Assembly (NCBI GenBank): GCA_026707585.1
Contig: JAPOWQ010000006.1
Coordinates: 62,001 to 126,000, forward strand
From: Chloroflexota bacterium
Lineage (GTDB): Bacteria; Chloroflexota; UBA11872
DNA length: 64,000 nt
Reading direction: 5' to 3'
Position numbers and translations under genes: made by a program. Within the stretch, counting starts at the first letter, position 1; every line of letters starts with the position of its first letter. Of the stretch, positions 53,274 to 54,097 are shown in pieces. The notes beneath the pieces are model-generated. The model saw only the letters and a list, made by a program, of their open reading frames with translations. It was not told the DNA's origin and did not search any database.

Positions 53274-54097
53274 GCGCCGATGCGGTGGTGCTGGGCGCCG
53301 GTTCCAGCGCCCGCATGGGCGGCGCGGACAAGCTGCTGGCCGACCTGGACGGCGAGCCGGTCATCGTCTGGAGTCTGCGGGCCTTCGAGGCCTGCCAGGG
53401 CATCCGATCGGTGGTCGTGACGACTTCTGACCACAATGAGGCGAGCATTCGCGAGGCCGTAGCGCGGGCAGGATTGGTCAAGGTGCGAGCGTTCGTCCGC
53501 GGCGGCTCGTCCCGGGCTCAATCCGTGCTCCACGGACTTCGCGCCCTTGACAGAAAGCCTTGCGAAACGCCCGTAGTCCGTGAAGATCCGGAGGCTCTTC
53601 CTCCCTCTCCTGAGGGAGAGGGTTGGGGTGAGGGGTCTTCCGGGCTAGATCGCCGGGATGAGCAAAGGTCTCGTGATAGGGAGCCGCCACACTACGTGGC
53701 CGTGCACGACGGAGCCCGGCCATTGGTGACGCCCATGCTGATTGAGGACGGCCTGCGGATGGCGCGGGTCTACGGCGCGGCCGTGGCAGCCGTTCCGGCC
53801 ACCGACACGCTCAAGATCGTCGATCGCGAGCGCCTGGTCGTTCGCACGCCAATCCGGTCGTCCGTCTGGCACGCCCAGACCCCGCAGTTCTCGCGCTTTG
53901 CGGACCTGTTGGGCGCGCACGAGCGACAGACCGCCATGCTCGATCTCTACACGGACGACGTCTCGGTTCTTGAAGCCGAGGGCTTGCCGGTCCGAGTATT
54001 TGAAGGGAGCCGCGAGAATCTGAAGATCACCACGCCGGACGACCTGGATGCGGCGGCGCGCATCGTGCGGCAGCGACGAGCAGCCGCCGCGACATAG
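53270..54097 (+). CDS. ispD: 2-C-methyl-D-erythritol 4-phosphate cytidylyltransferase with in-frame insertion
   Basis: AVVLGAGSSARMGGADKLLADLDGEPVI, VAVHDGARPLVTPMLIEDGL, TPDDLDAA; about 45 aa of non-IspD sequence between LRALDR and HYVAVHDGARP. Confidence 0.9.
   Translation: MSADAVVLGAGSSARMGGADKLLADLDGEPVIVWSLRAFEACQGIRSVVVTTSDHNEASIREAVARAGLVKVRAFVRGGSSRAQSVLHGLRALDRKPCETPVVREDPEALPPSPEGEGWGEGSSGLDRRDEQRSRDREPPHYVAVHDGARPLVTPMLIEDGLRMARVYGAAVAAVPATDTLKIVDRERLVVRTPIRSSVWHAQTPQFSRFADLLGAHERQTAMLDLYTDDVSVLEAEGLPVRVFEGSRENLKITTPDDLDAAARIVRQRRAAAAT
53551..53690 (+). repeat. dispersed hairpin repeat copy A, inside ispD
   Basis: CCCTCTC-CTGAGG-GAGAGGG hairpin then GGGGTGAGGGGTCTT...GAGCAAAGGTCTC, shared with 55195-55275. 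Confidence 0.75.

What the first reader, a model, noticed from the sequence alone, without database searches (positions are those of the whole stretch)
53551..53690. Hairpin repeat inserted in-frame inside ispD
Seen: the IspD frame runs unbroken through about 45 aa (KPCETPVVREDPEALPPSPEGEGWGEGSSGLDRRDEQRSRDREPP) between the conserved 'LRALDR' and 'HYVAVHDGARPLV'. The DNA carries a CCCTCTC-CTGAGG-GAGAGGG hairpin plus GGTGAGGGGTCTT and GAGCAAAGGTCTC, all or part of which recur at about 55.2 kb outside any gene. Established: Rickettsia palindromic elements can insert in-frame into essential genes. Inference: this is a comparable 'coding-tolerated' repeat family, here in an essential isoprenoid enzyme.
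Basis: partly seen in the sequence, partly recalled or inferred. Interest (0 to 1): 0.82.

Follow-up and report, generated by a model that had tools for sequence, protein, structure and literature searches.

The report
Jumping DNA repeat inside essential genes
In a genus of uncultured Chloroflexota bacteria, a 120-base transposon fragment has landed inside essential genes such as ispD without breaking their reading frame, adding a floppy loop of about 42 amino acids; some close relatives carry it and others have the clean empty gene, so the effect of such insertions can be tested directly.

Summary
The insert in ispD is a complete miniature inverted-repeat transposable element (MITE) of 120 bp (53553-53672). 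It has about 16-bp terminal inverted repeats (GAGACCTTTGCRWAAC) and a decayed 6-bp target duplication (TTGACA/GTGATA; exact TTGATA/TTGATA in two relatives). 120+6 bp = 42 codons, so the frame survives. The copy at 55.2 kb (55159-55275) is a second, degenerate full-length copy (E 3e-10). The genome holds dozens of copies; the full element was found only in one genus. An IS5-family insertion sequence with the same repeats, 6-bp duplication and preferred target is the likely transposase source. The core is the published intrastrand-triplex motif CCCTCTCCC..GGGAGAGGGTT.GGGTGAGGG. Close relatives lack the ispD insert exactly. Carriers do not form one clade, and a tract spanning the insert is near-identical between two otherwise diverged genes, so recombination probably moved it. 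Related elements or fragments lie in frame in gatB, imuB and cobT of sister species, again with empty alleles. AlphaFold places the ispD insert in a low-confidence loop beside an intact IspD fold. The comparison with Rickettsia palindromic elements holds as analogy, not homology. In this genome in-gene copies are rare (1 of 57 clusters in 40% of it).

The parts
53270..54097 (+). ispD (2-C-methyl-D-erythritol 4-phosphate cytidylyltransferase) with the in-frame insert
   Evidence: Pfam PF01128 2.9e-48 in two stretches; TIGR00453 above cut-off
53547..53552 (+). left copy of the 6-bp target site duplication, TTGACA
   Evidence: exact TTGATA/TTGATA in relatives G009 and G017 (L033, L032)
53553..53672 (+). 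the MITE, 120 bp, in frame
   Evidence: terminal repeats within 3 mismatches of GAGACCYTTGCRWAAC at both ends; profile 60.9 bits, E 1.1e-16
53553..53568 (+). 5' terminal inverted repeat (GAAAGCCTTGCGAAAC)
53603..53635 (+). intrastrand-triplex motif core CCCTCTCCTGAGGGAGAGGGTTGGGGTGAGGGG
   Evidence: near-identical to TMECO no. 17 in Table 1 of PMC4666352
53657..53672 (+). 3' terminal inverted repeat
53673..53678 (+). right copy of the target duplication, decayed (GTGATA)
55159..55275 (+). second, degenerate full-length MITE copy, intergenic
   Evidence: profile 40.2 bits, E 2.7e-10; no spanning coding frame
51933..53273 (+). radA-like gene directly upstream of ispD, used as linked marker

Best explanation
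A non-autonomous IS5-type MITE (120 bp, about 16-bp terminal inverted repeats, intrastrand-triplex core) was moved into ispD by a transposase acting in trans. It duplicated the 6-bp target TTGATA. Because 120+6 is divisible by 3 and the element has no stop in the frame used, it became 42 codons. The site lies in a surface loop between the helix ending at LRAL and the strand YVAVHDGARP, so the enzyme fold and conserved residues are intact. The allele then moved between species by short-tract homologous recombination (and was possibly also lost by recombination or precise excision), giving a patchy distribution. The same process made polymorphic in-frame insertions in imuB, cobT and gatB. Shown from sequence: element, terminal repeats, target duplications, partner IS, empty sites, frame, near-identical tract. 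Inferred: transposition in trans, recombination as the cause of the tract, the enzyme being active, near-neutrality.
For: Terminal repeats at both ends; 18 such terminal-repeat pairs in 1.58 Mb. 6-bp exact duplications in 12 of 57 elements against 0.5 expected, maximum 3 in 500 shuffles. IS5-family transposase (NF033581, 289 bits) between the same terminal repeats; the G014 copy (L329:162-1352) has duplication CTCAAG and lies in a CCCTCTCCCTCAAG/GGAGAGGG palindrome. Element in 12 of 13 genomes of the genus; elsewhere in the phylum the matches are almost all to the core alone. Exact empty ispD site in 10 of 13 genomes of the genus. Carriers are not one clade: AU p 1.8e-4. G009 against G017: insert 1/144 differences, rest of ispD 72/681, Fisher 1.4e-5; 209-nt tract, permutation p 6e-4. 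AlphaFold: core pLDDT mostly 95-98, insert about 59-66; TM 0.89 to solved B. subtilis IspD. Other genes.
Against: The duplication in the window's own copy has two mismatches. No activity, expression or transposition data. Only three ispD inserts were available as DNA; the other eleven only as protein. Insert distance tracks core distance weakly (Mantel r 0.23, p 0.04), so inheritance, transfer and loss are not cleanly separated. gatB copies lack the 5' terminal repeat.
Confidence: 0.84

Rival explanations
1. One ancient insertion in the ancestor of the clade, inherited vertically, with many later precise excisions restoring the empty gene.
For: Same site, orientation and frame in all 14 carriers; empty sites have no footprint. 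Tree needs 11 changes. Weak correlation of insert and core distances.
Against: The insert is far less diverged than synonymous sites of its host gene: G009/G017 1/144 nt against core dS 0.33; G000/G009 insert dS 0.03 against core 0.59. Vertical age would predict near-neutral divergence. The near-identity extends into the upstream flank.
Confidence: 0.2
2. Independent insertions at the same hot-spot in each lineage.
For: The IS and MITE prefer particular targets: 25 of 57 copies lie beside CCCTCTCC/GGAGAGG arms; imuB has two loaded sites.
Against: The ispD site is not such a hairpin; carriers share orientation, frame and a recognisable insert peptide, and the three with DNA share the flank CTTGAYAG.
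Confidence: 0.12
3. The insert is a selected, functional extension of IspD (regulatory or interaction loop).
For: Retained in 14 proteins without stops; similar insertions in other conserved genes.
Against: Insert differs 35% between carriers against 10% for the core; G000/G009 differences are 15 replacement to 1 silent, which is not purifying selection on the protein; middle segment freely remodelled; sister species lack it.
Confidence: 0.07
4. Artefact of metagenome assembly.
For: The relatives named are metagenome bins.
Against: Same insert in independent assemblies, some on contigs of over 1 Mb (P0009, P0011), with exact target duplications and an undisturbed frame.
Confidence: 0.02

Closest known systems
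Rickettsia palindromic elements (RPE; Ogata et al. 2000, 2002, as described in PMC10969869)
   Same: About 150-bp palindromic repeats that sit in frame inside unrelated protein-coding genes and add peptide segments to proteins.
   Different: Nearly half of the first RPEs reported lie in ORFs, whereas in-gene copies are rare here. This element has IS5-type terminal repeats, 6-bp target duplications and an identified partner IS, lies in Chloroflexota, and has empty alleles and recombination tracts. Homology not shown.
Intrastrand triplex motif TMECO (Holder et al. 2015, PMC4666352)
   Same: Core sequence nearly identical to E. coli TMECO copies.
   Different: The paper reports it always intergenic in E. 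coli K-12 and never with transposase remnants; here it is carried inside a MITE, is a favoured target of the IS, and lies in coding sequence.
MITEs of Coxiella, QMITE1 and QMITE2 (PMC5896051)
   Same: Short non-autonomous elements with terminal repeats and direct repeats; QMITE2 carries a palindrome targeted by an IS (IS1111), and QMITEs sometimes lie in frame in the middle of hypothetical genes.
   Different: Here the partner is an IS5-family element with the same ends, and the in-frame hosts are conserved enzyme genes.

Membership tests
MITE (IS5-family derived) | terminal inverted repeats | tested here: met
MITE (IS5-family derived) | target site duplication | tested here: met
   6 bp exact in 12/57 against 0.5 expected; exact in ispD of G009 and G017; the window's copy has 2 mismatches
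MITE (IS5-family derived) | short, no transposase, multicopy | tested here: met
   mostly 119-144 bp, tens of copies per genome
MITE (IS5-family derived) | autonomous partner with the same ends and duplication | tested here: met
   L171:536-1728 and L329:162-1352, NF033581
MITE (IS5-family derived) | mobilisation by that transposase | not testable with these tools
   needs a transposition assay
Rickettsia palindromic element | in-frame insertion in conserved protein genes | tested here: met
   ispD, imuB, cobT, gatB
Rickettsia palindromic element | belongs to a Rickettsia repeat family | tested here: inconclusive
   element with ends found only in one Chloroflexota genus; RPE sequences were not at hand for comparison; hence not filed as an RPE
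Intrastrand triplex motif TMECO | sequence consensus | tested here: met
   compared with Table 1 of PMC4666352
Intrastrand triplex motif TMECO | intergenic location, no link to transposons (as reported for E. coli) | tested here: not met
   inside ispD and inside a MITE
Intrastrand triplex motif TMECO | folds as triplex | not testable with these tools
   needs CD spectroscopy or chemical probing
REP/REPIN with RAYT | Y1 tyrosine transposase partner | not tested
   a DDE (IS5) partner was found instead

The most novel reading that the evidence does not exclude
A MITE that is stop-poor in four of six frames, and that carries and targets a triplex-forming motif, acts as a genus-wide generator of new in-frame loops in conserved proteins; the loaded alleles circulate between species by recombination, and the partner IS offers a route by which intrastrand-triplex motifs spread in bacterial genomes.
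Probability: 0.4. Interest if true: 0.82.

Novelty: new variant of a known kind. Interest (0 to 1): 0.68.

Why it matters
Frequent insertion of mobile repeats in frame into conserved protein genes is known mainly from Rickettsia, where the source of the elements and their entry into genes are hard to see. Here the source IS, the target duplication, the empty allele and the inserted allele all coexist in one genus, in genes that are generally essential (ispD, gatB). That makes a long-standing question directly testable: what a newly inserted peptide does to a working enzyme, and how such alleles spread. It also links a triplex motif that had no known means of movement to an insertion sequence.

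Tried and rejected
Rfam: no family for the element. DNA fold of the whole insert not exceptional (z -1.2), so a strong whole-element hairpin is not claimed. Precise excision alone rejected as the leading reading after the divergence tests. The claim that in-gene copies are common in this genome rejected: 57 clusters in 1.58 Mb that are 87% coding, 4 within stop-to-stop frames, of which only ispD is clearly internal. Most other spanning frames looked non-coding. First AlphaFold run with a shallow alignment was poor (mean pLDDT 66) and was replaced by a deeper one. A region search for other proteins with this peptide gave only ispD and two proteins without Pfam domains.

Full report
What is there. 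The window lies at G000:C23:62001-126000 of a 3.92-Mb genome in 75 contigs; close relatives are Chloroflexota bins by record title. ispD runs from 53270 to 54097 (+) and is open throughout. Pfam and NCBIfam recognise IspD in two stretches with the insert between them.

The element. Aligning copies shows a unit that begins GAGACCTTTGCGTAACCC and ends GGGTTACGCAAAGGTCTC, mostly 119-124 bp, with a longer subtype of 142-144 bp. The ispD copy is 120 bp, 53553-53672. The flanks carry a 6-bp duplication: TTGACA/GTGATA in the window, TTGATA/TTGATA in G009 and G017. Over 57 elements, 12 have exact 6-bp duplications against 0.5 expected from shuffled flanks (maximum 3 in 500 shuffles).

The partner. An IS5-family transposase (NF033581) lies between the same terminal repeats at G000:C68:1335-2527. 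That copy has no visible duplication, but the G014 copy (L329:162-1352) has CTCAAG on both sides and sits in CCCTCTCCCTCAAG/GGAGAGGG. MITE copies share this preference: 25 of 57 lie beside such arms, often nested in other copies.

The core. CCCTCTCC-TGA-GGGAGAGGG-TTG-GGGTGAGGGG matches the intrastrand triplex motif of PMC4666352, where E. coli copies were always intergenic and never beside transposase remnants. Core-sized matches recur across the phylum (49 of 399 genomes sampled have a match at E<1e-8, the genus included), while the element with its ends was found in 12 of 13 genomes of one genus.

Empty sites and spread. Of 13 genomes in the genus, three carry the ispD insert and ten have the uninterrupted site without footprint. 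Among proteins from wider databases, 14 carry it and close relatives do not. On the tree of the rest of the protein the carriers are scattered: 11 changes by parsimony, at least 4 on well-supported branches; one clade is rejected, AU p 1.8e-4. Between G009 and G017 the insert differs at 1 of 144 sites and the rest of ispD at 72 of 681 (Fisher 1.4e-5); the near-identical tract, nt 214-422, spans the insert and its upstream flank (permutation p 6e-4). Other pairs show long near-identical tracts in this region too. Between G000 and G009 the insert has dS 0.03 against 0.59 for the core. The insert thus looks younger than its host genes, which favours transfer by short-tract recombination. In the 13-genome set alone a single clade remains possible: radA groups the three carriers (96/92) but clpC does not.

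Other genes. An imuB-like Y-family polymerase gene has empty 520-521-aa alleles in G008, G013 and G015; one element in G000, G010, G012 and G014; two loaded sites in G016; and nested copies in G017 (745 aa), all in frame. cobT is interrupted in frame in G012, with a matching element-bearing cobT piece at a contig break in G010, against eight empty orthologues. gatB carries a core-containing in-frame segment in G010, G011, G013, G014, G016 (contig end) and G017, and none in G000, G007, G009, G012, G015 and G018; it lies in the linker before the C-terminal part. A further case in a long ORF of G013 (L347) uses a third frame; it is less certain, as no NCBIfam model matched. The consensus is open in 4 of 6 frames, and copies are open more often than shuffles in those frames (50-88% against about 33%). 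In the window's genome in-gene copies are still rare: one clear internal case (ispD) among 57 clusters in 1.58 Mb, plus imuB on another contig.

Structure. With a 69-sequence alignment AlphaFold gives mean pLDDT 91.9; the insert (about 96-138) is the only long low-confidence part, between helix 82-94 and strand 142-147. The model matches solved IspD structures with TM up to 0.89-0.93 normalised by the target. This shows compatibility, not activity.

Limits. Coding calls outside Pfam/NCBIfam matches use a home-made codon model. The relatives are metagenome bins. Carrier DNA was available for three genomes only. Essentiality of ispD and gatB rests on general knowledge, not on data from this genus.

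Noticed in passing
22859-23479: Five copies of an 87-bp-spaced direct repeat (29-residue coiled-coil-like repeats) in two adjacent small ORFs.
   Followed up: no
G000:C28:3920-4103 and G000:C36:49755-49871: Elements lie directly upstream of apparent gene starts (an MqnD-like and an enolase-superfamily-like gene), where they could supply leader sequence.
   Followed up: partly
L033:1781-1924 against L032:583-702: A 24-bp module (second mini-hairpin, SLPRTRSG) is present in one ispD insert and absent from its near-identical partner; the same difference separates P0009 from P0004.
   Followed up: partly
P0011, P0012, P0013, P0014: The middle of the ispD insert has been replaced by other low-complexity peptides, making the insert up to about 78 residues, still in frame.
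   Followed up: partly
L201:2-1801: The core motif alone lies in frame near the C-terminal end of a long ORF.
   Followed up: no
44130-44339 (-): Two adjacent tRNA genes with long matches (87-93 nt).
   Followed up: no
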